DNA from: Nitrospinota bacterium
GTDB taxonomy: Bacteria; 2-12-FULL-45-22; JACOWJ01
Length of the DNA stretch: 49,616 nucleotides
Assembly: GCA_016176845.1 (NCBI GenBank)
Contig: JACOWJ010000026.1
Location: forward strand, 1-49,616
Reading direction: 5' to 3'
In this document: positions 14,057 to 39,133 of the stretch, piece by piece
Numbering within the stretch: the stretch's first letter is position 1
How the letters are laid out: every line of letters starts with the position of its first letter
Position numbers and translations under genes: made by a program
Notes under the pieces: generated by a model
Seen by the model: only the letters and a program-made list of their open reading frames with translations
Databases searched by the model: none
What the model was told of the DNA's origin: nothing

Positions 14057-14096
14057 TGAAAATGGCCCCCGGAAGACTCGGGCATTTTCACGGTAA
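14057..14096. repeat. Intercistronic repeat, family G copy 1
   Basis: Contains CGGGCATTTTCACGGTAA (14079-14096), also present exactly at 37558-37575; including flanks the match is 23 of 24 bases. TGAAAATGGCCC at 14057-14068 forms an imperfect inverted arm with GGGCATTTTCA. It starts 8 nt after the rpmD stop and fills most of the rpmD-rplO gap. Confidence 0.65.
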
Positions 14097-14103
14097 AATC
14101 CTT

Positions 14104-14289
14104 TCATTCGTCTTCCACGACCTCGACCAGGTGGCTTACTTGCCGAACCATCCCTCGGATCGCCGGATTATCTCTCACTTCCACTGTCCTGTGCAGCTTG
14201 GTCAGACCCAAGGCCTTCAAGGTCGCCTTATGCTTGGCAGGCCTGCTGATGCCGCTTCTTCTCAAGGTAATCTTCAAGAGTGATTCCAT
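14104..14289 (-). CDS. rpmD: 50S ribosomal protein L30
   Basis: 61 aa, the usual size. The sequence [20 protein letters not shown] and the helix [13 protein letters not shown] are typical of L30, which lies on the solvent side of the large subunit near 5S rRNA. It follows rpsE by 31 nt. The C-terminus VVEDE is followed by a repeat cassette before rplO. Confidence 0.95.
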
Positions 14290-14320
14290 CCGTCCATCCC
14301 CTACGCTACGCCTAGGCCGG

Positions 14321-14854
14321 CTAGTTCCTCACACGCCTCTCGGCCCGCAACGGCCGGCTCAACTGCTCGACCATCTTCCCCCGCAACCGGGCCACCTCTT
14401 CTGCGCTCCGCAGCTGCTTCAGGCCTTCCAGGGTGGCCTTGACCACGTTGTGGGAATTGTTGGAGCCGAGCGATTTGCTCAGGACATCTCGTACCCCCGC
14501 CACTTCCAGGACGGCCCGGACCGCCCCCCCCGCGATCAATCCAGTCCCTTTGGCGGCCGGCTTCAGCAAAACCTCCCCCGCCCCGAAGTGTCCGATCACC
14601 TTGTGAGGAAGCGTATCCCCTTCCAGGGACACCCGGATCATAGACTTTTTGGCCTTCTCGATCCCCTTTCGGATGGCCTCGGGAACCTCGTTGGCCTTGC
14701 CCAGCCCGGACCCCACCCGGCCAGCCCGATCTCCTACCACCACGAGGGCGCTGAAGCTGAAGCGACGCCCACCTTTCACCACTTTGGCCACCCGGTTGAT
14801 GTGGACGATCTTATCGATCAGCTCCGTACTCGGAGCAGGACTCCCATTGGCCAA
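14321..14854 (-). CDS. rpsE: 30S ribosomal protein S5
   Basis: 177 aa. The double-stranded RNA-binding part ([20 protein letters not shown], residues about 14-33) and the C-terminal ribosomal fold are intact. S5 acts in decoding fidelity and mRNA unwinding at the ribosome entry. AGAAGGAGAG precedes the ATG at 14854. The 79-nt gap before it holds a repeat cassette that begins in the rplR stop codon. Confidence 0.97.
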
Positions 14855-14873
14855 TGGATCTCTCCTTCTAAAA

Positions 14874-14937
14874 TCAGGGGTTAGCCGTTAGGGCCTAGCA
14901 AATGGACATGATCGGAAATAAGTTTTTGAAGCCCTAA
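14874..14937. repeat. Heptamer-type repeat cassette A (rplR-rpsE gap)
   Basis: TTAGGGC at 14888-14894 and GCCCTAA at 14931-14937 form inverted arms; the right arm includes the rplR stop codon. The 12-mer TAGCCGTTAGGG (14882-14893) occurs inverted in cassette B at 19846-19857. Related by wording (GGGGTTA units, TAGCAAA) to the cassettes at 23051-23132 and 32120-32230. Confidence 0.6.
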
Positions 14938-15305
14938 AAAACAATCCCTTGTTGCCGAACCGCATCCGCCAGGGCCTTGATTTTTCCATGATAGAGGAAA
15001 CCGCCCCGATCGAACACCACCTTCTGGATGCCCAAGGCCAGGGCCTTTCCTCCCAGGATCTCTCCGACCACCCGGGCCGCTTCTACCGACTTCCCTCCCT
15101 GAGGCATCCGCTCGCGAAACTCCGGACTCAAACTGGAGGCTGCCACCAGGGTGTGGCCTCTCTCGTCGTCGATGATCTGTGCGTAAATATGGTGGTTGCC
15201 CTTGTAGACCGTCAGACGGGGCTGTCCCGAGCTTCCTAAGACCTTCCTCCGGACCCTTCGCTTTCGAATGAGTCTGGGGTCTTTCCTCTCTCTCTTGGTC
15301 AGCAT
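14934..15305 (-). CDS. rplR: 50S ribosomal protein L18
   Basis: 123 aa from the ATG at 15305. The frame is open further upstream but that part overlaps rplF, and L18 proteins begin as this one does (MLTKRERKDPRLIRKRRVRR). L18 binds 5S rRNA with L5 and L25. The core RLTVYKGNHHIYAQIIDDERG is clear. It starts just before the rplF stop region with GAGG 3 nt upstream. The stop TAG is part of a repeat cassette. Confidence 0.96.
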   Translation of the reverse strand: MLTKRERKDPRLIRKRRVRRKVLGSSGQPRLTVYKGNHHIYAQIIDDERGHTLVAASSLSPEFRERMPQGGKSVEAARVVGEILGGKALALGIQKVVFDRGGFLYHGKIKALADAVRQQGIVF

Positions 15306-15309
15306 ATCC

Positions 15310-15846
15310 TCACACTCTGCCCTTGCCTTCTTTAAGGCGGAGCTTCTCCATCGCGTACCTGATTCCCTTGCCCTTATAAGGATCCGGTGGCCTGAAGCCC
15401 CGGATCTCGGCCGCCACCTGTCCCACCAACTGCTTGTCGATCCCACTCACGACAATGATGCTCCGCTGAGGCAACTGGATCTCGATCTCCTCCGGAGGCG
15501 TATACCGGATCGGGTGAGAATAGCCCAAGCTCAAGACCAATATCCTCCCCTCCAGGGTGGCACGGTAACCCACTCCATTGATCTCCAGTTGCCGCTTAAA
15601 TCCCTGGGTGACCCCCACGACCACATTGTTCAGCAGACTGCGGGTCAGACCATGAAGGGCCTTCACCCGGTGAGCCTCGGAGCTCCTCTCCACCCAAATC
15701 TTCCCATCACCCATCCGGACAGAGACCTGAGGATTGACCGGGAGAGAGAGGACCCCTTTGGGTCCTTTCACCCGTACCCTATGATCGGCAAATTCCACCT
15801 CCACATCGGAGGGCAATTCGATCGGAGCCCTTCCTATCCTGGACAA
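15310..15846 (-). CDS. rplF: 50S ribosomal protein L6
   Basis: 178 aa with the two repeated L6 domains. Signatures include MSRIGRAPIELPSDVEVEF at the start and PDPYKGKGIRYAMEKLRLKE near the end. L6 lies beside the sarcin-ricin loop and the factor-binding site. It is 16 nt after rpsH, the standard spc operon order. Confidence 0.98.
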   Translation of the reverse strand: MSRIGRAPIELPSDVEVEFADHRVRVKGPKGVLSLPVNPQVSVRMGDGKIWVERSSEAHRVKALHGLTRSLLNNVVVGVTQGFKRQLEINGVGYRATLEGRILVLSLGYSHPIRYTPPEEIEIQLPQRSIIVVSGIDKQLVGQVAAEIRGFRPPDPYKGKGIRYAMEKLRLKEGKGRV

Positions 15847-15862
15847 CCGCTATCCCCCCTTC

Positions 15863-16261
15863 CTACCAAACCTGGCAGAGGACCTCTCCTCCCACCCTCA
15901 GCTCTCGGCAGGTCTTATCTGTCAGAATGCCCTTGGAGGTGGAAAGGATGGCCACGCCCAAGCCATCTAAGACCCGAGGAATCTCCTCCCTTTTCATGTA
16001 AACCCGGAGCCCCGGCTTGCTCACCCGCTGTATCCCATGGATCACGCTTTTTTCCCCTGGGGCATACTTGAGCTGGATCTTCAGGATGCCCTGCTTGTTG
16101 TCCTCGATAAACTGAAACTCCCGGATGAACCCCTCATCTTTTAAGATGGAGGCCACTCCCAGCTTGATCTTGGAAGCGGGTATGCGCACCTCCTCGTGTT
16201 TCGCCAGAATCGCATTCCTGATTCGGGTCAGCATATCCGCGATCGGGTCGGTCATGGACAC
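15863..16261 (-). CDS. rpsH: 30S ribosomal protein S8
   Basis: 132 aa, beginning [17 protein letters not shown] and ending in [19 protein letters not shown], the conserved C-terminal motif. S8 is an early-binding 30S protein and, in E. coli, the repressor of the spc operon through a site near rplE; no such site is recognised here. A 162-nt gap with a heptamer hairpin cassette separates it from rpsN, unusually long for this junction. Confidence 0.98.
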
Positions 16262-16281
16262 CTTTTACCTCGCTTCGCTCG

Positions 16282-16403
16282 AATGCAAAATGCAAAGTGT
16301 AAAATGCAAATTGTAAATTGTAAAAGAATCTCGTGCTTCAAGGTTCTTCATTTTGCACTTTGCACTTTGCACTTTGCACTTTGCACTTTGCATTTTGCAT
16401 TTT
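16282..16403. repeat. Convergent heptamer hairpin cassette E (TTTGCAC type)
   Basis: The right half (16350-16403) is seven tandem 7-mers, five of them exactly ACTTTGC flanked by ATTTTGC, plus a partial unit. The left half (16285-16326) is six degenerate units of the complement (GCAAAAT, GCAAAGT, GTAAAAT and so on). The outer 18 bases are a perfect inverted repeat (16282-16299 with 16384-16401). It starts 20 nt after the rpsN stop and ends 20 nt before the rpsH start. Confidence 0.9.
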
Positions 16404-16423
16404 CCAATTCCCCGCAGGGGCCG

Positions 16424-16609
16424 TTACCAGCTCGATTTGGTCACCCCGGGGATCTCTCCCCTGGAGGCCATATTGCGAAAACAGATCCGGCAAAGCGAAA
16501 ATTTGCGCAGATATGCCCGCGACCTCCCGCAGAGCCGACAGCGGTTCCGTGCCCTCACCTTGTACTTCGGTTCCCTTTTCGCCTTCTCGATCAAGGCCGT
16601 TCTTGCCAT
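16424..16609 (-). CDS. rpsN: 30S ribosomal protein S14, zinc-binding short form
   Basis: 61 aa with Cys24, Cys27, Cys40 and Cys43 as zinc ligands, the type-Z form. It ends [13 protein letters not shown], as expected. S14 is a late-assembling protein of the 30S head. Located between rplE and rpsH, the normal spc order. The stop is followed by a large repeat hairpin. Confidence 0.98.
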
Positions 16610-16618
16610 ACCTTCTCC

Positions 16619-17167
16619 CTAAAGCCTGAAAGGCATCCCCAGCAGCCGCAAGAGCTCTCTGGCCTCCTCATCCGTCTTAGCCGTGGTCGTCACGATTACC
16701 CCTAAGCCCCTCATCTTGTCCACCTTATCGTAATCGATCTCCGGGAAGATGACTTGTTCTCGTAGCCCCAGAGCAAAATTGCCCCTGCCATCAAAGGCCT
16801 TCCCCGATACCCCCCTGAAGTCTCGCACGCGGGGCAAGGCTACGCTCACCAGTCGGTCCAGGAACTCATACATCTGACCGCCCCGCAGGGTCACTTTGCA
16901 TCCGATAGACATCCCCGCTCGGAGCTTGAAGTTCGAAATCGATTTACGCGCCTTGGTGACTACGGGCTTCTGCCCGGTGATCCGGCCCAACTCTAGGACC
17001 GCCGAGTCGATCATCTTGGGGTTTTGGGTCGCCTCCCCCAGTCCCATATTGACCACGATCTTTTCCAGTTTCGGGACCTGCATGGGGTTCTTGTAGCCAA
17101 AGGTTCGCTGCAACTGAGGCACAACCTCCTGCTGATATCTCTCTCTCAGTCTGGCAACCGTAACCAT
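16619..17167 (-). CDS. rplE: 50S ribosomal protein L5
   Basis: 182 aa, starting [19 protein letters not shown]. The conserved [16 protein letters not shown] and [16 protein letters not shown] stretches are present. L5 binds 5S rRNA and contacts P-site tRNA. A 192-nt gap holding an inverted-repeat element separates it from rplX; a GAGAGGG site lies about 10 nt before the ATG. Confidence 0.98.
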
Positions 17168-17286
17168 GAATCCCTTGCCCTCTCTGGCCGCCGGTCTAAA
17201 CGATCGGCATCCTTATCAGAAGATTTGCCCCCAGCGGCTCTACTTTTTCAAATTCTGAGATTAAAGGTTGTGAAGGTCTTAACTGT

Positions 17287-17356
17287 CTATCCGGAAACCC
17301 CTCTTGCTCCTCTGCCTTCTCGGTCCAGGGAGGCCTTTTGGGAGGTTTTCGGATAG
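17287..17356. repeat. Inverted-repeat element F, copy 1 (70 bp)
   Basis: CTATCCGGAAACCCCTC at 17287-17303 is an imperfect inverted copy (3 mismatches in 17) of GGGAGGTTTTCGGATAG at 17340-17356. The element begins 3 nt after the rplX stop. A second copy with the same ends is at 39016-39130 after nusG. The remaining gap (17168-17286) shows nothing else recognisable. Confidence 0.7.
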
Positions 17357-17359
17357 GCT

Positions 17360-17692
17360 CTAAGTGCGGCCGATGGCCTCTCCGCACTTTTTACAGCTCC
17401 GGACCTTTTTCCCTTCCGGGTTGACCCGGTGGCCTACGCGCACCGGCTCGTTACATCGCGCACAGACAGGCATCACGTTGGAGATATGGAGTTTGGCCTC
17501 TTTTTCTACGATGCCCCCCTGTTGTCCCATCTTCGAAGCGCGCGTATGTCGTTTGACCAGGTTGACCTTCTCCACCAGGAGGCGGCTTTTGCCCGGGAAT
17601 ACCTGAAGGACCTTTCCTCGCTTCCCCTTCTCTTTCCCTGCGATCACTTCGACCAGGTCGTCCTTCTTTACGCTCAGCTTAACGGCCTCCAT
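17360..17692 (-). CDS. rplX: 50S ribosomal protein L24, cysteine-containing form
   Basis: 110 aa from the ATG at 17692; an upstream in-frame GTG is rejected because AGGAGG lies between the two. The KOW motif (VEVIAGKEKGKRGKVLQVFPG) at about 12-32 is typical. The C-terminal half carries CxxC pairs (VCARC and SCKKCG), a zinc-ribbon form of L24. L24 initiates large-subunit assembly. It is followed at once by the F1 repeat element. Confidence 0.97.
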   Translation of the reverse strand: MEAVKLSVKKDDLVEVIAGKEKGKRGKVLQVFPGKSRLLVEKVNLVKRHTRASKMGQQGGIVEKEAKLHISNVMPVCARCNEPVRVGHRVNPEGKKVRSCKKCGEAIGRT

Positions 17693-17703
17693 GCCTCCCT
17701 CCT

Positions 17704-18072
17704 TCACAACACTTCCGGCGCCAAAGAGATAATCTTCATGAATCCGGCTCTCCTCAGCTCTCTCGCCACCGGACCAAAAATGCGCGTGCCCAAAGGCTCC
17801 CTCTGGTCATTGATCAGCACGGCTGCATTCCGATCGAACCGGATATAAGAGCCGTCATCTCGCCTGTGCTCTTTTCGGGTTCGAATCACGACCGCGCGCT
17901 TGACATCCCCCTTCTTGACCGCACCCGTGGGCAAGGCCTCTTTCACCGCAACCACGATGACATCGCCAATATGGCCATACTTCTTCCGGGTTCCCCCTAG
18001 AACCTTAATGCACATGGCCTTCTTGGCCCCTGTATTATCAGCAATATCCAGCATCGTCCGCGATTGTATCAC
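17704..18072 (-). CDS. rplN: 50S ribosomal protein L14
   Basis: 122 aa, the exact family length, if read from a GTG at 18072 ([18 protein letters not shown]). The open frame extends upstream into rpsQ sequence without homology, so the GTG is chosen; GGTGAAAAG precedes it. L14 forms bridges to the 30S and binds the silencing factor RsfS. It is 11 nt from rplX. Confidence 0.97.
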
Positions 18073-18095
18073 CTTTTCACCCCGTCTCCTAGGCT

Positions 18096-18362
18096 CTAAA
18101 CCGTTGGGGCCTTCTCGACAACCTCCAGGACCCGCCATCGTTTATGACGGCTCAGGGGCCTCGCCTCGATGATCTTTACCTTGTCTCCCTCCCGGCATTC
18201 CTGGTTTTCGTCATGGGCCATGAACTTCTTGGTTCGCTTGACGATGCGCTTATATTGGGGGTGGGGCACAGCCACTTCCATCTTCACCATCACGGTCTTC
18301 TGCATCTTGCCGCTCACCACCTCCCCGATCCTGACCTTTCTCTTTCCCCTTTCTTGTTCCAT
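18096..18362 (-). CDS. rpsQ: 30S ribosomal protein S17
   Basis: 88 aa OB-fold protein. The core [23 protein letters not shown] and the helix [22 protein letters not shown] are the S17 signature. S17 binds 16S rRNA early in assembly. It is 13 nt after rpmC and 23 nt before rplN. Confidence 0.98.
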
Positions 18363-18375
18363 ACCGATCTGGCCC

Positions 18376-18561
18376 TTACCCTCTCTCTTTCAGAATGGTC
18401 TTGGCCCTGGCGATATCACGCCGGACCAACCGGATCCTCAGCGGGTTCTCGATCTGCCCCGTAGCCAGTTGATACTTCAAGCTAAAGAGCTCCTGCTGGA
18501 GGTCCCGGATCTTGGTCTTGAGCTCCTCCGCCGACAGCTCCCTCACTTCTGTGGCCTTCAT
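18376..18561 (-). CDS. rpmC: 50S ribosomal protein L29
   Basis: 61 aa from the ATG at 18561 ([20 protein letters not shown]). The frame opens earlier but those codons have no L29 similarity. Two helices with [19 protein letters not shown] between are the family pattern. L29 lies at the polypeptide exit, where trigger factor docks. The 76 nt between it and rplP hold nothing recognised. Confidence 0.97.
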
Positions 18562-18637
18562 CCCATAACTCCCTAAAGAGCCCCACCTCGTGGCCCCTCC
18601 AGCGAGCACTCGCCAAGGGGACCGCACTCGGCAATGG

Positions 18638-19057
18638 TTAACTGCCTATCGCCCCTTTCGCAATAAACCGGGTCCCCATCGGCAGCTTGTGCGAAGCCAG
18701 CCGCATGGCCTCCTTAGCTACCTCCTCCGAGACCCCATCCATCTCATAGAGGATCCTGCCCGGTTTCACGACGGCGACCCAGAACTCTGGAGGACCTTTG
18801 CCCTTTCCCATCCGGGTCTCGGCCGGCTTCTTGCTGATGGGCTTGTCGGGAAAGGCCCGGACCCAAATCTTGCCCGCTCTCTTGATGTAACGGGTCATCG
18901 CGACCCGGGCCGCCTCAATCTGACGACTGGTCAGCCAGAACGGCTCCAAGGCCTGCAATCCATAGCTGCCAAAGGCCAACGAGGCACCCCGCGTGGCCAT
19001 GCCGGTGCGCCGGCCTCTGTGCTGCTTCCGGTACTTGACCTTCTTCGGCATTAACAT
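18638..19057 (-). CDS. rplP: 50S ribosomal protein L16
   Basis: 139 aa, starting [19 protein letters not shown] and containing RVFPDKPI-like [21 protein letters not shown]16 sits near the A site and peptidyl transferase centre. Standard order rpsC-rplP-rpmC. The start ATG is followed two codons later by a second ATG; the first fits the family. Confidence 0.98.
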
Positions 19058-19083
19058 CGGTTATTCGATCTCCCCCTGACCTT

Positions 19084-19761
19084 TCAGCCCCTTGCCCTGG
19101 CTCTCCCCATCGGGATCGGGGGCTCCGGTCGCACCATCCCCAGGATATCCCCTTTAAAGATCCAGACCTTCACGCCAATCATCCCATAGGTGGTCTTGGC
19201 CTCCGCGAAGCCATAGTCAATATCGGCCCGCAAGGTTTGCAAGGGAACCCTTCCCTCCCGATACCATTCGGTCCGAGCCATTTCTGCTCCGGCCAGCCTG
19301 CCCCCACAAGTGATCTTGATGCCCTTCGCCCCAAACCTCATCGTGGAGGTCACGGCCTTCTTCATCGCCCTCCGAAAGGAGACCCGACGCTCCAGTTGCA
19401 AGGCGACATTCTCGGCGACCAGTTGGGCATCCATCTCCGGTCTTCGGACTTCCTTGATATTAATGGCGATCGTCTTGCTGATCTTTTTCTGAAGCTCGTC
19501 CTTGAGTTTGTCGATCTCGGCGCCTTTCTTGCCGATGATGATCCCCGGCCGGGCGGTATGGATATTCATTTTCATCCGGTTGCCCGTCCGCTCGATCTCG
19601 ATCCTTGAGATGCCGGCATGATACAGCCGCTCCTTGATGTACCTGCGCAGGAAGAGGTCCTCGTGCAGCAGGTCGTCGTATCCCTTTTTGGCATACCAAT
19701 TCGACAGCCAGGTCTTATTGATACCCAACCGCAAGCTAATGGGGTTCACCTTCTGTCCCAT
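19084..19761 (-). CDS. rpsC: 30S ribosomal protein S3
   Basis: 225 aa. A KH domain with [18 protein letters not shown] (about residues 70-87) and the C-terminal S3 domain with [13 protein letters not shown] are present. S3 forms the mRNA entry channel with S4 and S5. AGAAGGAGGA lies before the ATG. Upstream is an 86-nt gap filled by repeat cassette B. Confidence 0.98.
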
Positions 19762-19786
19762 CGTTCAATCCTCCTTCTAATAGGAA

Positions 19787-19857
19787 CCAGGCGCCTGGAA
19801 TTAGCAAAAGAGCCGTTTCTCTTTTCGCCATCACTAGCTCCTAACCCCTAACGGCTA
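19787..19857. repeat. Palindromic cassette B (rplV-rpsC gap)
   Basis: Contains CCCTAACGGCTA (19846-19857, the inverse of the cassette A core), a 7-bp hairpin AAAAGAG/CTCTTTT (19806-19812 with 19819-19825) and the perfect palindrome CCAGGCGCCTGG (19787-19798). The repeat core supplies the last codons and the TAG stop of rplV. Confidence 0.6.
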
Positions 19858-20258
19858 GCCCCGGCTCCACTGGACCGACGCTGTAACCCTCTGCGGGCAG
19901 AGACCCTCGCACCGACCAGCTTTTCTTGCGCCGATAAGACAAGCGTGATATGGCTGGTCCTCTTTCGAATGGGCGTCGCACGTCCCCTGGCCCGGGGCAG
20001 GAATCGCTTCATGACCGGGCCGCCATCCACCCAGGCTCGGCTCACCATCAGTGAGTCCACATCCACCCTCTCGTTCTGGCCGGCGTTGGCGATGGCGGAC
20101 CTCAAAAGCTTTTCAGTGATCCTGGCGGCAGCTCTCGGAGTGTAACTTAAGATGGAGAGGGCCTCTTCGGCCTTTTTCCCTCGGATCAGGTCCACGACCT
20201 GACGGGCCCTGCGAGGAGAAGTATGGATATGTCGGACAACCGCCCTGGCTGCTTCCAT
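19848..20258 (-). CDS. rplV: 50S ribosomal protein L22 with C-terminal extension
   Basis: 136 aa; typical L22 is about 110-115. The core (HIHTSPRRARQVVDLIRGKK to RKRTSHITLVLSAQ, residues about 11-111) is normal, including the hairpin that lines the exit tunnel. About 25 basic residues follow (GARVSARRGLQRRSSGAG). The last four codons and the stop are made of repeat sequence shared with another gap, so part of the extension may stem from an insertion at the original 3' end. Confidence 0.96.
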   Translation of the reverse strand: MEAARAVVRHIHTSPRRARQVVDLIRGKKAEEALSILSYTPRAAARITEKLLRSAIANAGQNERVDVDSLMVSRAWVDGGPVMKRFLPRARGRATPIRKRTSHITLVLSAQEKLVGARVSARRGLQRRSSGAGASR

Positions 20259-20271
20259 TTGGTTTGATCCC

Positions 20272-20556
20272 TTACTTTACCGAGGTCACCCTCTTGGTAT
20301 GCCCACTGTGGGTCTTAAAGGCCCGGGTTGGAGCGAACTCTCCCAGCCTGTGGCCCACCATGTTCTCGGTGACGTAAACAGGAACGAACTTCTTCCCACT
20401 ATGGACGGCGAAAGTGTGGCCTACCAGGGCAGGGGTGATGGTTGAACGCCGCGACCAAGTCTTTAGGACCTTCCTTTCGCCCTTTTCGTTCATCTCCTCC
20501 ACTTTTTCCGACAGCTTCGGGTCGATATAGGGACCCTTCCTTATGGAACGGCTCAC
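20272..20556 (-). CDS. rpsS: 30S ribosomal protein S19
   Basis: 94 aa, beginning [19 protein letters not shown] and containing [21 protein letters not shown]19 lies in the 30S head and contacts the A-site region with S13. Spacing to rplB 17 nt and to rplV 13 nt, as in a compact S10 operon. Confidence 0.98.
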
Positions 20557-20573
20557 GCCTCTTCACCCCCCCT

Positions 20574-21398
20574 TTATTTCCTTTTTTTCACGATATATTT
20601 GTTGGAATAAGCCTTTTTCTTCCGAGTCTTGTACCCCTTGGTCGGCTGCCCCCAAGGCGTCACCGGGTGTCTTCCCCCCGAGGTTTTCCCCTCTCCCCCT
20701 CCATGGGGATGGTCCACGGGGTTCATGGCGACCCCTCTAACCCTGGGCATGCGGCCCAGCCAGCGCTTCCTTCCCGCCTTGCCCACGCTTACGTTCTCGT
20801 GGTCCAGGTTGCCCACCTGGCCCACAGTCGCCATACAATCCAGCGGGACCAGCCTCACTTCGCCCGAAGGCATCCGAATATGGGCATATTCCCCCTCTTT
20901 GGCCATCAGGCGGGCGAAGGCGCCCGCGCTCCGGACCATCTGCCCTCCCCGGCCCTTCTTCAGCTCGATGTTGTGGATCAGGCTGCCCATGGGGATATCT
21001 CTCAGGGGCAGGGCATTGCCCGGCCGGATCTCCACCCCCGGACCCGACATCACCGTGTCTCCCACCTGGAGCTTCACCGGGGCCAGGATATACCGCTTCT
21101 CCCCGTCGGCATAGTGTAAAAGGGCGATCCGGGCCGACCGGTTGGGATCATATTCGATTGCCGCCACCCTGGCTGGAACATGCCACTTGTCCCGTCTGAA
21201 ATCGATGACCCGGTACTTTCTCTTGTGGCCTCCCCCTCGATAGCGCGCGGTGATCCGGCCGTAACTGTTCCGGCCTCCCGTCTTGGGCTTAGGCTCTAGC
21301 AGGGATTTTTCCGGTCCTCTTCGGGTAATCTCCTCGAAGGTGAGGGCGGTCTGAAACCGCCTCCCTGGAGAGGTCGGGTTATACGTCTTGATCGGCAT
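20574..21398 (-). CDS. rplB: 50S ribosomal protein L2
   Basis: 274 aa, the family length. The C-terminal [20 protein letters not shown] motif near the peptidyl transferase centre is intact, as is [19 protein letters not shown] near the N-terminus. L2 is essential for subunit joining. It starts 4 nt after rplW. Confidence 0.98.
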
Positions 21399-21402
21399 CT
21401 CG

Positions 21403-21699
21403 TTAAACCCCCTCGAAGAACTCTATCTTATCGCCATGCTTCAGGGTAATGTAGGCCTTCTTCCAATCGGGCCTCTTGCCCTTTCGCAGGCGCAGCCCCT
21501 TGATCTTTCCCATAACCTTGGTGGTGTTGACATCGAGCACCGTGACCCCGAAGACCTCCTCGATCGCCCGCCGGATCTCATTCTTGTTGGCCCGGAGATC
21601 CACCACAAAGGCCACGCAATCGTTGGCATCTTTCAAGTTGATGCTCTTTTCGGTAACCAGAGGCCGCCGAATGATCTGATAAGGATCCCATGTTTTCAT
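21403..21699 (-). CDS. rplW: 50S ribosomal protein L23
   Basis: 98 aa. The pattern [20 protein letters not shown] followed by [17 protein letters not shown] is typical. L23 is the exit-tunnel docking site for trigger factor and SRP. Its ATG overlaps the rplD stop as ATGA, so the pair is translationally coupled. Confidence 0.98.
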
Positions 21700-22322
21700 C
21701 TCGATAGGACCCCTTCTATCTTGGAGACTGCCTCCAAGGGAGAAATGATCTGGTCATAGTATAGCAGATCATACACGTTCATGGCCTCCACCTTCAAGGC
21801 CTTGGTTTGAGGCAAGTTTCGCACCGCCAGGGCAAAATTCCGATCGATCTCCGGCAGCAAGAACAAGACCTTCCCCGAGACGCCCAAGCGCTCCAATAGG
21901 GCCACCACCTCTCGGGTCTTGGGGTTCTCCACGGCGACCCGATCAACCACCAGGAATTGGTTCTCCCGGACCTTGGAGCTTAAGGCCACCCTCAGGGCGG
22001 CCCGGCGGACCTTTTTGGGAACCGAATAGGCATAATCTCGGGGCTTGGGGCCGAAACTGATGCCTCCACCCCGCCACAGGGGGGATCGCTTATGCCCAGC
22101 CCGGGCCCTTCCGGTCCCCTTCTGCCTCCAAGGTTTCACGTTGCTCCCGCTAACCTCGGACATCGTCTTGGTGGAGGCCGTCCCTCTTCGCCGGTTGGCC
22201 AGCTGCATCGTCACCACCTCTTGCAGAAGGTGCTCCTTGCCCTCTACGGCGAAGACCTCGGGCTTCAGCGCTACCTCGCCCACCTTTTGCCTGTTGATAT
22301 CGATCACATCCACCGTCGGCAT
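21696..22322 (-). CDS. rplD: 50S ribosomal protein L4
   Basis: 208 aa. The extended loop with WRQKGTGRARAGHKRSPLWR (about residues 63-82) lines the exit tunnel. In E. coli L4 also controls the S10 operon by attenuation at its leader; no equivalent leader is evident here, since rpsJ is fused behind tuf. The stop overlaps the rplW start. Confidence 0.98.
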   Translation of the reverse strand: MPTVDVIDINRQKVGEVALKPEVFAVEGKEHLLQEVVTMQLANRRRGTASTKTMSEVSGSNVKPWRQKGTGRARAGHKRSPLWRGGGISFGPKPRDYAYSVPKKVRRAALRVALSSKVRENQFLVVDRVAVENPKTREVVALLERLGVSGKVLFLLPEIDRNFALAVRNLPQTKALKVEAMNVYDLLYYDQIISPLEAVSKIEGVLSR

Positions 22323-22378
22323 CTCTCTTCCTCATGAGGCATAACGACCCCATCGCCCAAGCGATAGGCCCTGTGAGT

Positions 22379-23032: not shown

Positions 23033-23050
23033 CTGGTCTCCCGAAAGCAA

Positions 23051-23132
23051 GGGGTTAGGATCCAGGGATTAGGGATTAGTAGAAACCGAGGATTACCAAC
23101 TCGTTCTTACTAACCCCTAATCCCTAATCCCT
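23051..23132. repeat. Convergent heptamer hairpin cassette C (TAATCCC type)
   Basis: AGGGATTAGGGATTAG (23064-23079) and CTAATCCCTAATCCCT (23117-23132) are a perfect 16-bp inverted repeat made of tandem 7-mers, with variant units GGGGTTA and TAACCCC beside them. It begins 9 nt after the rpsJ stop and ends about 20 nt before rplC. It would fold into a stable hairpin in the mRNA; there is no U-run. Confidence 0.9.
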
Positions 23133-23141
23133 CTTTGCGCG

Positions 23142-23450
23142 CTAAAGTTTGATCTCGATGTCCACCCCGGCGGACAGGTCCAATTTCATCAGCTCGTCGA
23201 TCGTTTGAGGGGTGGGATCGTAGATATCCAAGAGGCGCTTGTGGGTACGGATCTCAAACTGCTCCCGCGATTTCTTATCCACGTGGGGTGACCTCAAGAC
23301 GGTGAACTTGTTCTTGACGGTGGGAAGGGGAATTGGCCCGACCACCTTGGCCCCGGTCTTCTTGGCCGTCTCCACGATCTCCCCCACGGACTGATCCAAT
23401 ACCCTGTGATCGTAAGCCTTCAGGTGGATCCTGATCTTTTGGTTCGCCAT
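23142..23450 (-). CDS. rpsJ: 30S ribosomal protein S10 (NusE)
   Basis: 102 aa from the ATG at 23450, preceded by AGAGG; the frame opens five codons earlier. The sequence [18 protein letters not shown] and the loop [20 protein letters not shown] are the S10 signature. Besides its place in the 30S head, S10 acts with NusB in antitermination and binds NusG. It follows tuf after 76 nt, so the S10 operon appears joined to the str operon. Confidence 0.98.
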
Positions 23451-23526
23451 AACCTCTCTTGACAAAGAAGTCTCCTATCGGGCCCCCCTTGCGGGCGCAC
23501 CTTCGTAAGGCCGGGATAGCCCCCCT

Positions 23527-24726: not shown

Positions 24727-24754
24727 TGCTGATTTACCTCCTCCTTAAAGCTTT

Positions 24755-27384: not shown

Positions 27385-27403
27385 AGCCTTCCCCTCAAGC
27401 GTC

Positions 27404-27903: not shown

Positions 27904-27923
27904 CCTTGGGAACGAAATTCCTT

Positions 27924-27951
27924 ATTATACTTCTTTATGAATATTTGTCAA
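27924..27951 (-). promoter_or_regulatory. Strong sigma70 promoter of the str operon
   Basis: Minus strand: TTGACA at 27951-27946, 16-nt spacer rich in A/T, TATAAT at 27929-27924. Both hexamers are perfect. It lies 20 nt after the rpoC stop and gives a leader of about 140 nt to rpsL. Confidence 0.9.
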
Positions 27952-27971
27952 GAACGAAAGCAGACCGCCGG

Positions 27972-32093
<4,122 letters not shown>

Positions 32094-32119
32094 AAGAACC
32101 CCTCCTCACACACAGGAAA

Positions 32120-32230
32120 TAGGGGTTAGGGGCTAGGGGTTAGCAAAAGCAAATGCATTTCACCAACCTCCAACCTCCGATCACCGATCCGGCGAATCCC
32201 TAATCCCTAATCCCTAATCTCTAACCCCTA
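32120..32230. repeat. Convergent heptamer hairpin cassette D (rpoB-rpoC gap)
   Basis: TAGGGGTTAG (32120-32129) is the perfect inverse of CTAACCCCTA (32221-32230). The next 14 bases inward match with four transitions, so up to 24 bp can pair. The right arm carries three TAATCCC units. It overlaps the rpoB stop codon (32228-32230) and ends 26 nt before rpoC. Confidence 0.85.
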
Positions 32231-35200
32231 ATTTGAGTTCTCTTCGCCCTCGATCAACTCCACATCTAAGGCCAGGCTTTGAAGCTCTTTGATCAAGACG
32301 TTGAAGGACTCTGGCAGGTTCGGCACCGCCGTATACTCTCCCTTGACGATGGCCTCGTACATCCGGGTCCTCCCCGAGACGTCGTCCGATTTGATGGTCA
32401 ACATCTCCTGAAGGGTCTTGGCTGCCCCATAGGCCTCCAGGGCCCATACCTCCATCTCTCCCAGACGCTGGCCGCCGAACTGGGCCTTGCCCCCCAGGGG
32501 TTGCTGGGTGATCAAAGAGTATGGACCGGTGGAGCGGGCATGGATCTTATCGTCCACCAGGTGATGGAGCTTCATCATATAGATCTGGCCCACGACCACC
32601 TTTTGATCGAAGGACCCGCCCGTCTTGCCATCGTACAGGACGGTCTCCCCCCATGGGGGCAAACCTGCCTGCCGGAGGAGGTTTTGGATGTCCTCTTCCG
32701 TAGCCCCATCGAAGACGGGGGAGGCCACATGATAGCCCAGGGCTTTGGCCGCCCACCCCAGATTGGTCTCCAGAATCTGACCCACGTTCATCCGTGAAGG
32801 CACCCCAAGCGGGTTGAGGATCAACTCGATCGGCGTCCCGTCGGGCAAGTAGGGCATATCCTCTTCGGGGACGATCTTGGCGATGACGCCCTTGTTGCCA
32901 TGCCGGCCTGCCATTTTGTCGCCCACGGAGAGCTTGCGTTTCATGGCTACGTAAACCTTGACCACCTTGATGACTCCAGGGGCCAGATCGTCGCCCCTGC
33001 GCATCTTGGAGATCTTCTCCTCCAGCATGGTCCGAAGGATATGGATCTGTTCGCCAGCCCGGGCATCCATCTCCTGGATCCCGGCCTTCAAGGAGTCCTG
33101 GCTATCGCCTTCGATTTTGAGGTTCAGCAGCTGATAGGAGCTTATTCGCTCAAGGACCTCCGGAGTCAGCTTGCCCCCCTTGGAGCTTAGGCCCTCGCCC
33201 GTGGCCGGGTCTCGGACCTCAGCCCCGCTGATCTTCCCCGCCAGGAGCCGCCGAATCCGCTTATCTCGTTCCTCTTGAACCAGATGGATCTCGTCGTTAA
33301 AATCCTTCTCGATCCTGGTCGTCTCCTGCTCCTCGATCGACAACGTCCTCGGGTCTTTCTCCGTTCCCTTGCGGGAGAAGACTTTTACGTCGGTCACCGT
33401 CCCTTCGATGCCGGGAGGCACAACCAACGAGGTGTCTCGCACGTCACCGGCCTTCTCGCCGAAGATCGCCTTAAGGAGCTTCTCTTCCGGGCTCAGCTGG
33501 GTCTCTCCTTTAGGCGTGATCTTGCCCACCAGGATATCGCCCGGCTTCACCTTGGAGCCGATCCGGATGATGCCGCTCTCATCGAGGCTCTTGAGGGCTT
33601 CTTCGCTCACGTTGGGGATATCGCGAGTGATCTCTTCCTTGCCCTGCTTCGTGTCGCGCGCCTCCACCTCCAGCTCTTCGATATGGATCGAGGTAAAGAC
33701 GTCCTCCTTGACTACCTTCTCGCTGATGACGATAGCGTCCTCAAAGTTATAGCCTTCCCAAGGCATGAAGGCCACCAGGATGTTGCGGCCTAAGGCCAAT
33801 TCCCCGCGATCGGTGGCCGGCCCATCGGCGATGATATCTCCTTTCTCCGCGGGCTCCCCTTCTCGGATGATCGGCCTCTGATTGAGGCAGGTGTTCTGGT
33901 TGGAACGCTGATACTTGGTCAAGTTGTAAATCTCGATTCGGGGCTCAGCGTTCTCTTCTCTCTCCTCTCTCTCCTCCTCCAGCACGCGAACTACGATACG
34001 CGAGGCATCCACGGAGATCACCGTGCCGTTGGCCCGGGCGACCACCACCGCCCCAGAGTCCCGGGCCGTGATGTACTCCATGCCCGTCCCCACGAGCGGA
34101 GCCTCGGTCTTCAGCAAGGGCACTGCCTGCCGTTGCATGTTGGAGCCCATTAGGGCCCGGTTGGCATCATCGTTTTCCAGGAACGGGATCAGCGAGGCGG
34201 CCACGCTCACCAGCTGCTTGGGAGAGACGTCCATGTAATCGACCTTTTCCGGCGGGACCATCACAAATTCGCTGCCCTTCCGGGACGAGATCAGCTCCTG
34301 GGTGAAATCGCCCTCTTCGTTCACCTCGGCATTGGCCTGTGCGATGACGTATCTCTCCTCCTCGATGGCCGACAGATGATCGACCTGATCGGTGAGCCGG
34401 CCGTTCTCCACTTTCCGATAGGGGGTCTCGATCAGGCCGAACTCGTTGACCCGGGCGTACGTGCTGGGCGAAGCGATCAGGCCGATGTTGGGCCCTTCCG
34501 GGGTCTCGATGGGACAGATCCGCCCGTAATGGGAGGGATGCACGTCTCGGACTTCGAAACCCGCCCGATCCCGCGTCAGCCCGCCCGGCCCCAGGGCGCT
34601 TAGGCGACGCTTGTGGGTGATCTCCGACAGGGGATTGGTCTGGTCCATGAACTGCGAGAGCTGGCTGCTGCCGAAGAATTCCTTGATCGCCGCCATGATC
34701 GGCTTGGAGTTGATCAGGTCGTGGGGCATGGCCGACTCCAGGTCCTGGATGCTCATTCGTTCCCGGAGGGCCCGCTCCATGCGAACCAGGCCGATGCGGA
34801 ATTGGTTCTCCAACAGTTCCCCCACCGATCGCACCCGCCGGTTTCCCAGATTATCTATATCATCCACCGAGCCGATGCCGTGTCGCAGGTCGATCAGGTA
34901 CTTGATGACCGCCACGATATCCTCGGTGGTTAGCGTCCTTTGGTCCAAGGGGATGCCCAGGCCCAGCTTGGTATTGAGCTTCATCCGACCGATCTTGGAA
35001 AGGTCGTACCGCTTGGCGTTGAAGAAAAGGTTATTGAAGAGCTTGACCGCCGGCTCCTTGGTCGGCGGGTCCCCTGGCCTGAGACGCTTGTAGATCTCCA
35101 GCAGGGCCTCATCCGAGGTGCTGATCCGGTCCATGGCCAGAGTATCTCGCAGGGAGGAATCGTAGCGGAGGTTATCGATGTAAAGAATCTTAAATTGCTT

Positions 35201-36310
35201 GATCCCTCTCCCCTTGATCTTCTCCAAGACGCCCGGGGTAACCTCGCGGTTGACCTCCAGCAGCACCTCTCCCGTCTCCTCGTCCACGATGTCCTGGGCG
35301 CTGATCTTCCCGATCAGCTCATCTTCGGGCACGGCCAGGGTATCGATCCCCAGGGTCTTGATCTTCCTCAGGGCGCTCTTGGAGATCCGGCGGTTGGCCT
35401 TGACGACGGCCTCCCCGGTCTCCGGGTCGATGACGTCCTCCTTGGGCTTCTGGCCGATGAGGAAATCGGTGACCTTCTTGGAGAGCTCCTCTTTGACCGG
35501 GTTGTAGAAAACCTCCTCGGTCTTATAGAAGAGGGCCAGCAGGTCCTCGGTGGTCAATCCCAGGGCCCGCAAGAGGATCGTGGCCGGGAGCTTGCGCCGC
35601 CGATCGATCCTCACGTTGAGCAGGTCTTTGGCATCGAACTCAAAGTCGATCCATGAGCCCCGATAGGGGATGATGCGGGCCGAGTAAAGGACCTTGCCGC
35701 TGGTGTGGCCTTTGCTCTTCTCATGGGCGAAGATCACCCCTGGAGAGCGATGCAGCTGGCTGACGATGACACGCTCCGTCCCGTTGATGATGAACGTCCC
35801 TTTGTCGGTGATCAGGGGGATCTCCCCCAGGTAGACCTTCTGCTGCTTCACGTCCAGAAGCCTCAGGCCTCCGGTCTCCTCATCCTTCTCATTGATTACC
35901 AGACGCACCATGATCCTCAAGGGATCCGCGTAGGTCATCCCCCGCAGCTTGCACTCTTCCACTTCATACTTGGGTTTATAGAGCACATGCTGGTTACAGC
36001 GAGAGCAGACTACCCGGGGACCACCCAGCTCCTTGTACTCGCCGCAGCCGCACGCCCACGTGCCGATCTCGTACCCCACGTGCTCCAGGAAAGCCGTTTC
36101 GCTGAAATCACTGATGGGGAAGACGCTGCGGAAGACCGACTCCAGCCCGATGTCTTCTCGCTCATAGGGATTGACGTCCAACTGTAAGAACCGGCGGTAA
36201 GACTCCTGCTGGATCTCGATCAGATTGGGCAGCTCAATGATGGTTGGGATCCGAGAAAAATCTTTCCTCTCCCTCAGCTTGCCATTGGTTGAAACACCAA
36301 TTTTGGCCAT
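32228..36310 (-). CDS. rpoB: RNA polymerase beta subunit
   Basis: 1360 aa. The rifampicin-pocket region is wild type ([33 protein letters not shown]). A zinc-like [11 protein letters not shown]...CSRC sits in the first 120 residues (CGCGEY...VVCSRCNQH), a cysteine pair set often absent in E. coli RpoB. C-terminal catalytic signatures ([14 protein letters not shown]) are intact. Preceded by rplL at 59 nt, the standard order. The stop TAG is inside a repeat cassette. Confidence 0.98.
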
Positions 36311-36369
36311 TAAGCTTCACCTCAACTTCTGTATATCATATCATTTTCATTTCTTTGAAACGGGTCAGG

Positions 36370-36753
36370 CTACTTGACCTCCACTTCTGCTCCGGCCTCC
36401 TCCAGCTTCTTGCGGATCTCCTCGGCCTCTTCTTTTGAGACCCCCTCTTTCACTGGTTTGGGGGCAGTATCCACCAGCTCCTTGGCCTCCTTGAGGCCCA
36501 AGCTGGTCAGGGCTCTGACCTCCTTAATCACCTGAATCTTCTTCTCGCCCGCGCCCTTCAGCAGAACCATAAAGGAGGTCTTCTCTTCCTCGACGGGCTT
36601 CTCGGCCATAGCTGTAGGAGCCATCATGGCCATGGCAGGGGCGGCAGCCGTGACTCCAAACTTTTCCTCCAGCTCCTTAATGAACTTTGACAGATCCAAG
36701 ACGGTCATATTCTCGATGAAGCTCACCACGGCTTCTTTCGTGATATCGGACAT
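36370..36753 (-). CDS. rplL: 50S ribosomal protein L7/L12
   Basis: 127 aa. An N-terminal dimerisation domain, an Ala/Met/Pro hinge ([16 protein letters not shown], about residues 36-51) and the C-terminal domain with [19 protein letters not shown] that recruits translation GTPases. The hinge is unusually rich in methionine. A 103-nt leader carries a motif shared with the rplK leader. Confidence 0.98.
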
Positions 36754-36762
36754 CTTCTCTCG

Positions 36763-36814
36763 GTTTAAGCAGCCCGACGAGACCGCAAGCTGCTAAGGCC
36801 GCCTTTCTTCGGCC
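36763..36814 (-). promoter_or_regulatory. Leader motif upstream of rplL, shared with rplK
   Basis: On the minus strand a GGCCG/CGGCC hairpin is followed by GCGGTCTCGTCGGGCTGC and TTAAAC. The 43-nt part 36763-36805 matches 38942-38984 at 34 of 43 positions without gaps. It ends 9 nt before the rplL start. AGCAGC/GCTGCT can also pair here. Function unknown. Confidence 0.65.
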
Positions 36815-36856
36815 TACATCGATCTATATGCCTTCAAGCGCTCCCGCTCGCCGGGG

Positions 36857-37420
36857 TTAGAATCCGTCGGGTTGCTCGGGGAACGCGTCCGCCGGCCCCT
36901 TTTTCTCCTCGAGCGCTTTAAGGACGTACAGGAAATCCCTTAAGACCCCTTGGAGCACCCCGACCAGGTTGGCCGCTGGTGCCTGCAACTGGCTCAGCAA
37001 GTGGCTGAGCAGCACCGGCTTCGCGGGCAGGTTGGCGACAGCCGCAACCTCATCGGGCCTCACCGCAGCACCGTCCAGGACTCCGCCCTTGATTTGTATA
37101 GGGCGCTCTTTTGGACCCTGCTTTTTGATGAAGGAAGTAAGGACTTTGGCCGGGGCCAACTCGTCCTGATAACTGTAGGCCACCGCTGTGGGCCCCGCGA
37201 ACAGGTCTGCGGCCTTCTCAACCTCTGTCCCTTGCGCGGCTCGCTTGGCCAGGGTATTCTTGACCACCAGGTACTCGATCCCGGCCTCTCTCAATTGTGC
37301 CCTCAGCTCGGTCATCTTCCGGACGTTCAAACCCCTGAAATCCACCAGGATCATCCCTTTAACCCGCTGGAACTTAACGCGCAACTCTTCCACCATGTCG
37401 GTCTTCGCCTTGTCCGCCAA
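36857..37420 (-). CDS. rplJ: 50S ribosomal protein L10
   Basis: 187 aa if read from a TTG at 37420 (start L-A-D-K-A-K-T-D-M-V-E-E-L); AGGAGGT lies 11 nt upstream. Alternatives are an ATG at 37396 or the longer ATG at 37483, which has no ribosome site. L10 anchors the L7/L12 stalk. The conserved MILVDFRGLNVRKMTELRAQ is clear. A leader of about 280 nt between rplA and rplJ is the usual place for the L10 autoregulatory site. Confidence 0.93.
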   Translation of the reverse strand: MADKAKTDMVEELRVKFQRVKGMILVDFRGLNVRKMTELRAQLREAGIEYLVVKNTLAKRAAQGTEVEKAADLFAGPTAVAYSYQDELAPAKVLTSFIKKQGPKERPIQIKGGVLDGAAVRPDEVAAVANLPAKPVLLSHLLSQLQAPAANLVGVLQGVLRDFLYVLKALEEKKGPADAFPEQPDGF

Positions 37421-37505
37421 GTTCGATCCCACCTCCTTCCAGGACCCTTCGTCCGCTGTCCGCTCTAAAACAAGATCCCTCATTGGAAGACCCGTAAACC
37501 ATCAT

Positions 37506-37523
37506 GACCCACCAGGGTGGGTC
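37506..37523 (-). other. Perfect hairpin in the rplA-rplJ leader
   Basis: GACCCACC (37506-37513) pairs with GGTGGGTC (37516-37523), a compact 8-bp palindrome about 85 nt before the rplJ start. It may be part of an L10-binding leader, but I could not match the known L10 leader consensus by eye. Confidence 0.5.
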
Positions 37524-37551
37524 GTCCCCGCAGAGGAAAAGGTCCTTCAGA

Positions 37552-37616
37552 AAGACCCGGGCATTTTCACGGTAACCGGTCATACCTAATAGGCACCCAA
37601 GCCCATGAAAATGGCC
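37552..37616. repeat. Intercistronic repeat, family G copy 2
   Basis: CGGGCATTTTCACGGTAA at 37558-37575 is identical to 14079-14096. TGAAAATGGCC at 37606-37616 is its inverted partner, here on the other side than in copy 1. Lies in the rplA-rplJ gap. Confidence 0.65.
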
Positions 37617-37623
37617 TGTGAGG

Positions 37624-37661
37624 CCCCCTCTCCCTTCGGGGGAGAGGGTTGGGGTGAGGGG
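37624..37661. repeat. GAGAGGG-type dispersed hairpin
   Basis: CCCTCTCCC (37626-37634) pairs with GGGAGAGGG (37640-37648), followed by TTGGGGTGAGGGG. This wording is a very common intergenic palindrome in many bacterial genomes. It lies between rplA and rplJ, about 40-75 nt after the rplA stop. Confidence 0.7.
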
Positions 37662-37698
37662 CTATTTTCATATTAAACCCTCCCCCAAACGGGGCCCC

Positions 37699-38403
37699 TT
37701 ACCTCAAGAGGCTGGCAACCTGGACGGGATCCAATTTGATCCCTGGCCCCATGGTGGAGGAGATTGCCATCCCTCGGATGTATTGTCCCTTGCTGGAGGC
37801 AGGCTTGAGCTTGACCAACATCTCCAAAAAGGCCCCCGCGTTCTCCTTCAAGGCCTCCGGAGAGAAGCTGATCTTGCCCAGGGGGACGTGCATGATGCCG
37901 GCCTTGTCCACCCGAAACTCGATCTTGCCTGCCTTGACCTCGGCCACCGCCCGGGCGATATCGAAGGTCACCGTCCCGGACTTTGGGTTCGGCATCAACC
38001 CCCGTGGCCCCAAGATCTTTCCCAACCGGCCCACCGTCCCCATCATGTCCGGGGTGGCGATGGCTCGATCAAAATCCAGCCAGCCGCCCTGGATCTTCTC
38101 CACCAGATCCTCGGCCCCCACGTAGTCCGCTCCAGCCTCGAAGGCCTCCTTCTCCTTCTCCCCCTTGGCGAAAACCAGGACCCGCACGCTCTTGCCGGAC
38201 CCCTTGGGGAGCACCACACTGCCCCGAACCATCTGATCCGCATGCTTGGGGTTGACGCCCAACTTGACGGCGATCTCCACGGTCTCATCGAACTTGGCGC
38301 AAGCCGTCTTTTTGACCAGCTCCAGGGCCTCTTCCAGGGGATATCTCTTCTCTCGATCGATCACCTTCAAGGCTTCCAGATATCTCTTTCCTCGGTTTGG
38401 CAT
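37699..38403 (-). CDS. rplA: 50S ribosomal protein L1
   Basis: 234 aa. Two-domain L1 with [16 protein letters not shown] and [17 protein letters not shown] at the C-terminus. L1 binds 23S rRNA at the E-site stalk and, in E. coli, represses the rplKA operon. Standard order rplK-rplA-rplJ-rplL. A GAGAATCC-type leader of 91 nt separates it from rplK. Confidence 0.98.
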
Positions 38404-38494
38404 TGCTTGGATTCTCCCGAAAAAAACTCAAGACCTAGAACCCGAAGCGCAAAGACTCCTCTTCTCGCCTGCCCCAAGCTTAGGTCTTAGCCGC

Positions 38495-38923
38495 TCAATC
38501 GGCGATTACCTCGATGCCCATTCCCCTGGCCGTCCCCTCGATGATCCGCATAGCCGCCTCCAAATCATTGGCGTTGAGGTCCTTGCCCTTCTGCTGGGCG
38601 ATCTGCCGGATCTGGATCCGGGTCACCTGACCCACTTTCTCTCGCTTGGGTTTGGAGGAGCCCTTGGCGATACCTGCGGCCTGCTTGAGCAAGATAGCGG
38701 CAGGCGGGGATTTGGTCACGAAGGTAAAGGTTCGATCCGAGTAAATCGTCACCACGACCGGGATGATAAGTCCCTGTCGATCCTGGGTCTGGGCATTGAA
38801 GGACTTGCAGAACTCCATGATGTTGACCCCGTGCTGCCCCAAAGCCGGGCCCACAGGCGGTGCCGGGGTGGCTTGCCCTGCCGGGATCTGCAATTTCACC
38901 GAGCCGGTTACCTCTTTTGCCAT
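38495..38923 (-). CDS. rplK: 50S ribosomal protein L11
   Basis: 142 aa. N-terminal [20 protein letters not shown] and C-terminal rRNA-binding domain are typical, with [15 protein letters not shown] between. L11 forms the GTPase-associated centre and mediates RelA activation. A 210-nt upstream gap carries element F2 and the leader motif shared with rplL. Confidence 0.98.
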
Positions 38924-38941
38924 CTTTCCACTCGCTCCTGA

Positions 38942-38997
38942 GTTTAAGCAACCTGACGAGATCGCCAGATCCGGAGGCCGTCTTGGCTCAGCCGGCC
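38942..38997 (-). promoter_or_regulatory. Leader motif upstream of rplK, shared with rplL
   Basis: GGCCG (38997-38993) can pair with CGGCC, followed by GCGATCTCGTCAGGTTGC and TTAAAC. The 43 nt 38942-38984 match the rplL leader at 34 positions. It ends 18 nt before the rplK ATG. Differences are mostly transitions. Confidence 0.65.
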
Positions 38998-39015
38998 CAC
39001 TCCTCCACCTGAGGA

Positions 39016-39130
39016 CCTATCCAAAAACCTCCCGAAAGGCTTTTTCGACCGGAAAAGGGGTTGAAAGAGAGGTGTCCGAAGCGGTGCTTAAGTAAGCTTC
39101 GCTTCTCGAACCAGGGAGTTTTCGGATAGG
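39016..39130. repeat. Inverted-repeat element F, copy 2 (115 bp)
   Basis: Ends CCTATCCAAAAACCTCCC (39016-39033) and GGGAGTTTTCGGATAGG (39114-39130) are inverted, differing by one base and one indel. Inside are nested hairpins, for example GAAGCG/CGCTTC with GCTTA/TAAGC. It begins 3 nt after the nusG stop, exactly as copy 1 follows rplX. Confidence 0.7.
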
Positions 39131-39133
39131 CAG

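What the first reader, a model, noticed from the sequence alone, without database searches (positions are those of the whole stretch)
14057..39130. Palindromic cassettes start right after stop codons throughout the ribosomal superoperon
Nine gaps carry hairpin-forming cassettes: after map (hairpin, 20 nt), rpmD (8 nt), rplR (overlaps stop), rpsN (20), rplX (3), rplV (overlaps), rpsJ (9), rpoB (overlaps) and nusG (3). They come from at least four unrelated sequence families, yet all occupy the same position relative to the upstream stop and leave the downstream ribosome site free. Either several palindromic elements can only survive there, or the host uses such hairpins as mRNA stabilisers or processing sites between ribosomal genes. 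I know of no described system of this form.
Basis: partly seen in the sequence, partly recalled or inferred. Interest (0 to 1): 0.72.

Follow-up and report, generated by a model that had tools for sequence, protein, structure and literature searches.

The report
Scattered hairpin repeats fill operon gaps
The hairpins between this bacterium's ribosomal genes are copies of short repeated DNA elements scattered through the whole genome, and they sit just after stop codons mainly because that is the only room left between one gene's end and the next gene's ribosome-binding site.

Summary
The cassettes are real, but they are neither specific to ribosomal genes nor drawn to stop codons. In a 1.05 Mb sample of the host genome, 172 of 593 gaps carry strong inverted repeats, against 6 in shuffles. 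The ribosomal gaps hold copies of dispersed families: F3 (36 copies in the sample), F4 (65), and hairpins with heptamer-tandem stems (GGGRYTA, GCAAART), some with conserved loops, present in both orientations. Of the nine listed gaps, the map gap is single-copy, and rplR and rplV are degenerate. The 302-nt rplA-rplJ cassette was missed.

Placement follows geometry. With 18 nt reserved before the next start, 55 of 139 same-strand hairpins start within 10 nt of a stop, 53.2 expected. Four other genomes agree: 57 observed, 57.7 expected. F3 alone shows an excess (9 versus 5.3, p=0.006), because its ends carry TAG/TAA and can supply the stop. Heptamer stem arms do not covary, and the families are absent from the only same-order genome held. 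This favours tolerated insertions over a host mRNA-stabilising system. Heptamer hairpins near stops are already described in Xanthomonas.

The parts
14018..14098 (-). F4 element (TTTTACCGTGAAAATGCC...CATTTTCAT...GGCCATGTCGGTTT) in rpmD>rplO; residual gap 20 nt
   Evidence: nhmmer family of 65 copies in the 1.05 Mb sample, true ends from flanks; 43 exact core copies in the whole assembly; homologous gap in L062 is 19 nt
14860..14898 (-). degenerate arm of a GGGRYTA heptamer element in rplR>rpsE
   Evidence: blastn matches at two other places; fold not significant, z 0.83
16282..16401 (-). GCAAART heptamer hairpin in rpsN>rpsH
   Evidence: IR score 32.5, TRF period 7, fold z -5.25
17279..17364 (-). 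F3 element in rplX>rplE; its left end CTTAG supplies the rplX stop TAG
   Evidence: nhmmer family of 36 copies, true ends, fold z -2.59
19775..19860 (-). degenerate GGGRYTA-like segment spanning the end of rplV (its last codons and stop lie in GGGGCTAGCCGTTAG) and the rplV>rpsC gap
   Evidence: sequence; no other copy found; fold z -0.58
23051..23131 (-). GGGRYTA heptamer hairpin in rpsJ>rplC
   Evidence: fold z -4.43
32117..32233 (-). GGGRYTA heptamer hairpin in rpoB>rpoC overlapping the rpoB stop (AATTAG|GGGTTAG)
   Evidence: IR score 18.7, overlap -6 nt; fold z -3.87
37496..37575 (-).
37592..37676 (-). second palindromic element (TATGAAAATAGCCCC...GGCCATTTTCATGGGC) in rplA>rplJ, at least four further copies
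   Evidence: fold of the composite z -3.76
39014..39136 (-). F3-type element in nusG>rplK; the stop TAA of nusG is the first triplet of TAACTGCCTATCC
   Evidence: fold z -4.42
38943..38993 (-). F5 element before rplK (ends 19 nt before its start)
   Evidence: four copies in the sample, all just upstream of start codons
36764..36814 (-). F5 element before rplL (ends 10 nt before its start)
10715..10832 (-). map>infA gap: single-copy leader, NOT a cassette
   Evidence: no other copy; fold z -1.09

Best explanation
The cassettes are copies of several unrelated families of short, non-coding, palindromic dispersed repeats (REP/MITE-like) that have spread through the intergenic DNA of this genome. 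In the heptamer families both stem arms are tandem 7-nt units; the two best-sampled heptamer families also have a conserved loop. Shown: they are dispersed, occur in both orientations, lie between genes of all kinds, are under-represented in divergent gaps, and keep clear of roughly the last 12-18 nt before a start codon. Shown: homologous operon gaps in relatives are usually 12-30 nt, so an insertion that spares the ribosome-binding site must end up within a few nt of the stop; position matches uniform placement in the allowed room. Shown for F3 and several heptamer copies: the element edge contains TAG/TAA and can itself be the gene's stop codon. Inferred: they spread by a copying mechanism (enzyme unknown), vary in heptamer number by slippage, and are tolerated rather than selected. 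Any effect on mRNA stability or ribosome release is incidental.
For: Dispersed families: F3 36 and F4 65 copies in 1.05 Mb, with 43 exact F4 cores and 34 GGGATTA-array hits in the assembly. Conserved loops GTAAGAAAGAAGAGCTTTTGC and TGTTAAGCAAGAAA in both orientations. IR excess: 172 gaps versus 6 in shuffles. Of 410 intergenic tandem arrays 332 have period 7, 14 or 21, against 23 of 229 in coding sequence. Placement null: 55 observed versus 53.2 expected, and 30/31 versus 30.9 where slack is below 30 nt. Replicated in four other genomes: 26/27.3, 14/14.4, 4/3.0 and 13/13.0. Divergent gaps 0.54 elements per kb versus 1.66 tandem and 2.10 convergent. Relatives' gaps are short. Element-borne stops. 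No arm covariation. Not enriched in the operon.
Against: The placement test depends on how much room is reserved before the start: with 8 nt the excess near stops is significant (P 0.018), with 12 nt marginal (0.09), with 15 nt or more absent. Gaps with 60-120 nt of slack show 9 versus 5.1 expected. F3 on its own is enriched near stops. No mobilising enzyme was identified: no Y1_Tnp in the 68%-complete assembly. Genes were called with a home-made ORF caller, so some start positions are uncertain.
Confidence: 0.82

Rival explanations
1. Host-used RNA hairpins: the cassettes were recruited as 3'-end stabilisers, processing sites or ribosome-stalling elements that tune expression between ribosomal genes, as some E. 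coli REPs do.
For: Stable folds just after stops in the rpsN, rpsJ, rpoB and nusG gaps. E. coli REPs stabilise upstream mRNA, and REPs within 15 nt of a stop are reported to stall ribosomes (PMC12306157). Unrelated genomes also have hairpins in many of their S10/spc gaps.
Against: Same families genome-wide and in divergent gaps; no operon enrichment; placement explained by room; heptamer arms do not covary; families absent from the same-order genome; several listed cassettes fold no better than shuffles.
Confidence: 0.1
2. Insertion-site preference: the mobilising machinery targets sequences typical of gene ends, such as T-rich TTAA/TTAG stop contexts, so copies land at stops.
For: F3 9 versus 5.3 expected within 10 nt of a stop, with TTTAA|C or TTAG|A at the junction.
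Against: Those junction letters are also present at F3 copies far from any stop, so they belong to the element ends. The other three families tested show no excess.
Confidence: 0.08
3. Chance hairpins of a GC-rich genome.
For: True for map>infA, and the RNA folds in the rplR, rplV and rpmD gaps are not significant.
Against: Genome-wide excess of inverted repeats over shuffles and high-copy families.
Confidence: 0.01

Closest known systems
GGGAATC heptameric repeats of Xanthomonas, and GGGGA(C/T)T of Nostoc (PMC4692102)
   Same: 7-nt units, intergenic, many paired as convergent inverted arrays, mostly 0-50 bp after stops with some overlapping the stop codon
   Different: One main unit per genome there; here several unrelated units in one genome, conserved loops shown for two of them, and placement tested against a geometric null
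REP/BIME sequences of enterobacteria and pseudomonads
   Same: Dispersed extragenic palindromes, often just after stop codons, within operons
   Different: Longer (60-120 nt), heptamer-tandem stems, no Y1 transposase found in the incomplete host assembly
MITEs and small mobile repeats (RUP/ERIC/RU type)
   Same: F3 has terminal inverted repeats of about 15-20 nt and a fixed length near 80 nt; termini can fuse to genes
   Different: No parent transposase or target-site duplication established
Heptanucleotide repeats of Geobacter metallireducens and TAACTGA repeats of Beggiatoaceae (PMC2700814, PMC4679880)
   Same: Abundant intergenic heptamer arrays; TAACTGA arrays also lie in ribosomal protein operons
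   Different: TAACTGA arrays are direct repeats just upstream of start codons, not hairpins

Membership tests
Heptameric intergenic repeats (Xanthomonas type) | tandem 7-nt units, intergenic | tested here: met
   257 of 410 intergenic arrays have period 7 (332 with 14 and 21); 23 of 229 in coding
Heptameric intergenic repeats (Xanthomonas type) | paired as convergent inverted arrays | tested here: met
   unit-first/complement-second 87, reverse 0, over five families
REP/BIME | high-copy dispersed extragenic palindrome | tested here: met
REP/BIME | 20-40 nt unit | tested here: not met
   elements are 60-120 nt
REP/BIME | associated Y1 (RAYT) transposase in the genome | tested here: inconclusive
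   none in the 68%-complete assembly; present both in genomes with and in genomes without the hairpin excess
REP translation control (within 15 nt of stop, ribosome stalling) | hairpin within 15 nt of the stop | tested here: met
   55 of 139 within 10 nt, but as expected from geometry
REP translation control (within 15 nt of stop, ribosome stalling) | stalling or altered expression | not testable with these tools
   needs ribosome profiling or reporters
MITE | terminal inverted repeats, fixed length | tested here: met
   F3 ends CTTAGAGCCTATCC / GGATAGACMGTTAR
MITE | target-site duplication and parent transposase | not tested
   no empty sites available in close relatives

The most novel reading that the evidence does not exclude
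Unrelated bacteria (this candidate-phylum lineage and several deltaproteobacterial MAGs) independently carry several hairpin families whose stems are built of 7-nt units with different sequences but one fixed polarity (usually a purine-rich first arm), and these fill most ribosomal-operon gaps. A shared generating process, for example a polymerase or enzyme with a 7-nt step, rather than descent of one sequence, would then be acting across phyla.
Probability: 0.3. Interest if true: 0.6.

Novelty: new member of a known kind. Interest (0 to 1): 0.36.

Why it matters
It gives a quantitative reason for a pattern often read as regulatory: when dispersed hairpins enter short operon gaps, sparing the ribosome-binding site alone forces them against the stop codon. 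The same test can be applied to REP claims elsewhere. It also shows element ends that bring their own stop codon, and the recurrence of 7-nt-unit hairpins in unrelated genomes, for which no mechanism is known.

Tried and rejected
- Transcription-orientation bias of the arms: first read as a bias, then rejected, because an inverted repeat reads the same on both strands. What remains is a fixed polarity of each family.
- RAYT as the mobilising enzyme: absent here, and it does not track the hairpin excess in other genomes.
- Rfam: only tRNAs in the window.
- Intrinsic terminators: few hairpins are followed by T-runs (13 of 139 in sense).
- Stop-codon usage: a TAG excess next to cassettes is only suggestive (p 0.077).
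- Compensatory pairing between heptamer arms: none above within-element permutation.

Full report
What was checked. The superoperon is transcribed on the - strand. I listed every gap in mRNA sense and folded it. Repeats in rpmD>rplO, rpsN>rpsH, rplX>rplE, rpsJ>rplC, rpoB>rpoC and nusG>rplK are real. map>infA has no second copy in the sample and does not fold better than shuffles; rplR>rpsE and rplV>rpsC are degenerate.

Genome-wide context. The host assembly is 1.53 Mb in 61 contigs, 68% complete; only one other genome of its phylum is held. I took 1.05 Mb as stretches and called 902 genes, 78% coding. The best inverted repeat per gap reaches score 14 in 172 of 593 gaps, against 6 after dinucleotide shuffling. 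Intergenic tandem arrays are dominated by a period of 7 nt: 257 of 410, or 332 counting 14 and 21, against 23 of 229 in coding sequence. Main units are GGGRYTA, TTTTARG, AATTGRAA, GCAAART, ATAGCTC and GGGRACA.

The elements. F3 (36 copies in the sample) and F4 (65) are unrelated palindromic families found in tandem, convergent and divergent gaps and in both orientations. The GGGRYTA and TTTTARG hairpins have conserved loops, again in both orientations, and variable numbers of units, so they are dispersed copies rather than local expansions. In five heptamer families the unit arm always comes first and its complement second, 87 to 0. An inverted repeat reads the same from both strands, so this is a property of the element, not of transcription direction. 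Matching units in the two arms do not covary above a within-element permutation: 0.876 versus 0.890, and 0.933 versus 0.939.

Placement. Of 139 hairpins between co-directional genes, 55 begin within 10 nt of the stop. If each is placed uniformly in its own gap with 18 nt reserved before the next start, 53.2 are expected. By slack class the figures are 30 versus 30.9 (below 30 nt), 14 versus 14.0 (30-60), 9 versus 5.1 (60-120), 1 versus 2.5 (120-300) and 1 versus 0.7 (above 300). Reserving 15-25 nt gives no excess, 12 nt a marginal one (P 0.09), 8 nt a significant one (P 0.018). Few hairpins end close to a start: 10 of 139 within 12 nt. The same test gives 26 versus 27.3, 14 versus 14.4, 4 versus 3.0 and 13 versus 13.0 in four other genomes with an excess of hairpins. 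Homologous gaps in relatives are mostly 12-30 nt, so there the only room that spares the ribosome-binding site is the first few nt after the stop. For rpmD>rplO, the gap minus F4 is 20 nt, and the gap in the closest named relative is 19 nt.

Stops inside elements. F3 is the one family enriched near stops (9 versus 5.3, p 0.006); F4, GGGRYTA and TTTTARG are not. Its ends read CTTAGAGCC... and, from the other side, YTAACNG..., so the stop codon often lies in the element end, as for rplX and nusG. Several heptamer copies likewise run through the stop (gggattagGGATTAG), and 31 of 139 hairpins overlap it. In rplV the last codons and stop lie in GGGGCTAGCCGTTAG.

Function. Against a dedicated ribosomal RNA-stabilising system: no enrichment in the operon (3 of 23 versus 136 of 461 gaps), presence in divergent gaps, both orientations, no arm covariation, and absence of the F4 core and the GGGATTA array from the same-order genome, which nevertheless has its own hairpins and heptamers. 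Under-representation in divergent gaps (0.54 versus 1.66 and 2.10 per kb) fits removal from promoter regions. RNA data were not available, so incidental effects on decay or ribosome release remain possible.

Wider occurrence. Ribosomal operons of several deltaproteobacterial MAGs (L071, L100, L112, L101) also carry heptamer hairpins in multiple gaps, with other units. Their genomes show lag-7 arrays in excess (91 of 115 segments of lag 5-10 in G031). Three control genomes have at most one such hairpin. Y1 transposases do not track this.

Known work. REPs within 15 nt of stops are reported to stall ribosomes, and REPs stabilise mRNA (PMC12306157). Xanthomonas carries GGGAATC heptamer arrays, about 70 in convergent inverted pairs, mostly 0-50 bp after stops on the coding strand and including copies overlapping the stop (PMC4692102). 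Heptamer repeats are also known in Geobacter metallireducens and Beggiatoaceae, in the latter within ribosomal protein operons (PMC2700814, PMC4679880). The families here are new members of that kind. The least explained part is why unrelated genomes share a 7-nt unit with fixed polarity.

Noticed in passing
window 38943-38993 and 36764-36814; L019 19797-19847; L021 18243-18293: F5: a 51-nt palindromic element (GGCCGAAGAAAGGCGGCCTTAGC...GCTTAAA) that in all four copies ends 10-19 nt upstream of a START codon in the same orientation, including rplK and rplL.
   Followed up: partly
window 27924-27951 (- strand): Consensus-like promoter TTGACA-16-TATAAT in the rpoC>rpsL gap, followed by a strong single-copy hairpin.
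   Followed up: no
window 19848-20258: rplV ends in a C-terminal tail whose last codons and stop lie in heptamer-like sequence (GAGASR*), possibly an element fused to the gene.
   Followed up: partly
window 18562-18637: rplP>rpmC gap is 76 nt here, whereas these genes usually overlap or abut in relatives (median -4 nt); single-copy sequence.
   Followed up: no
genome sample, intergenic: GTCATTGCGAGC / GAAGCAATCT and GGAAATTCCTATA 10-mers occur 40-108 times between genes: further dispersed families not in the operon.
   Followed up: no
L071, L100, L112: Ribosomal operons of other deltaproteobacterial MAGs have heptamer hairpins in many gaps, 0-10 nt after stops and 11-27 nt before starts, with different units.
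   Followed up: yes
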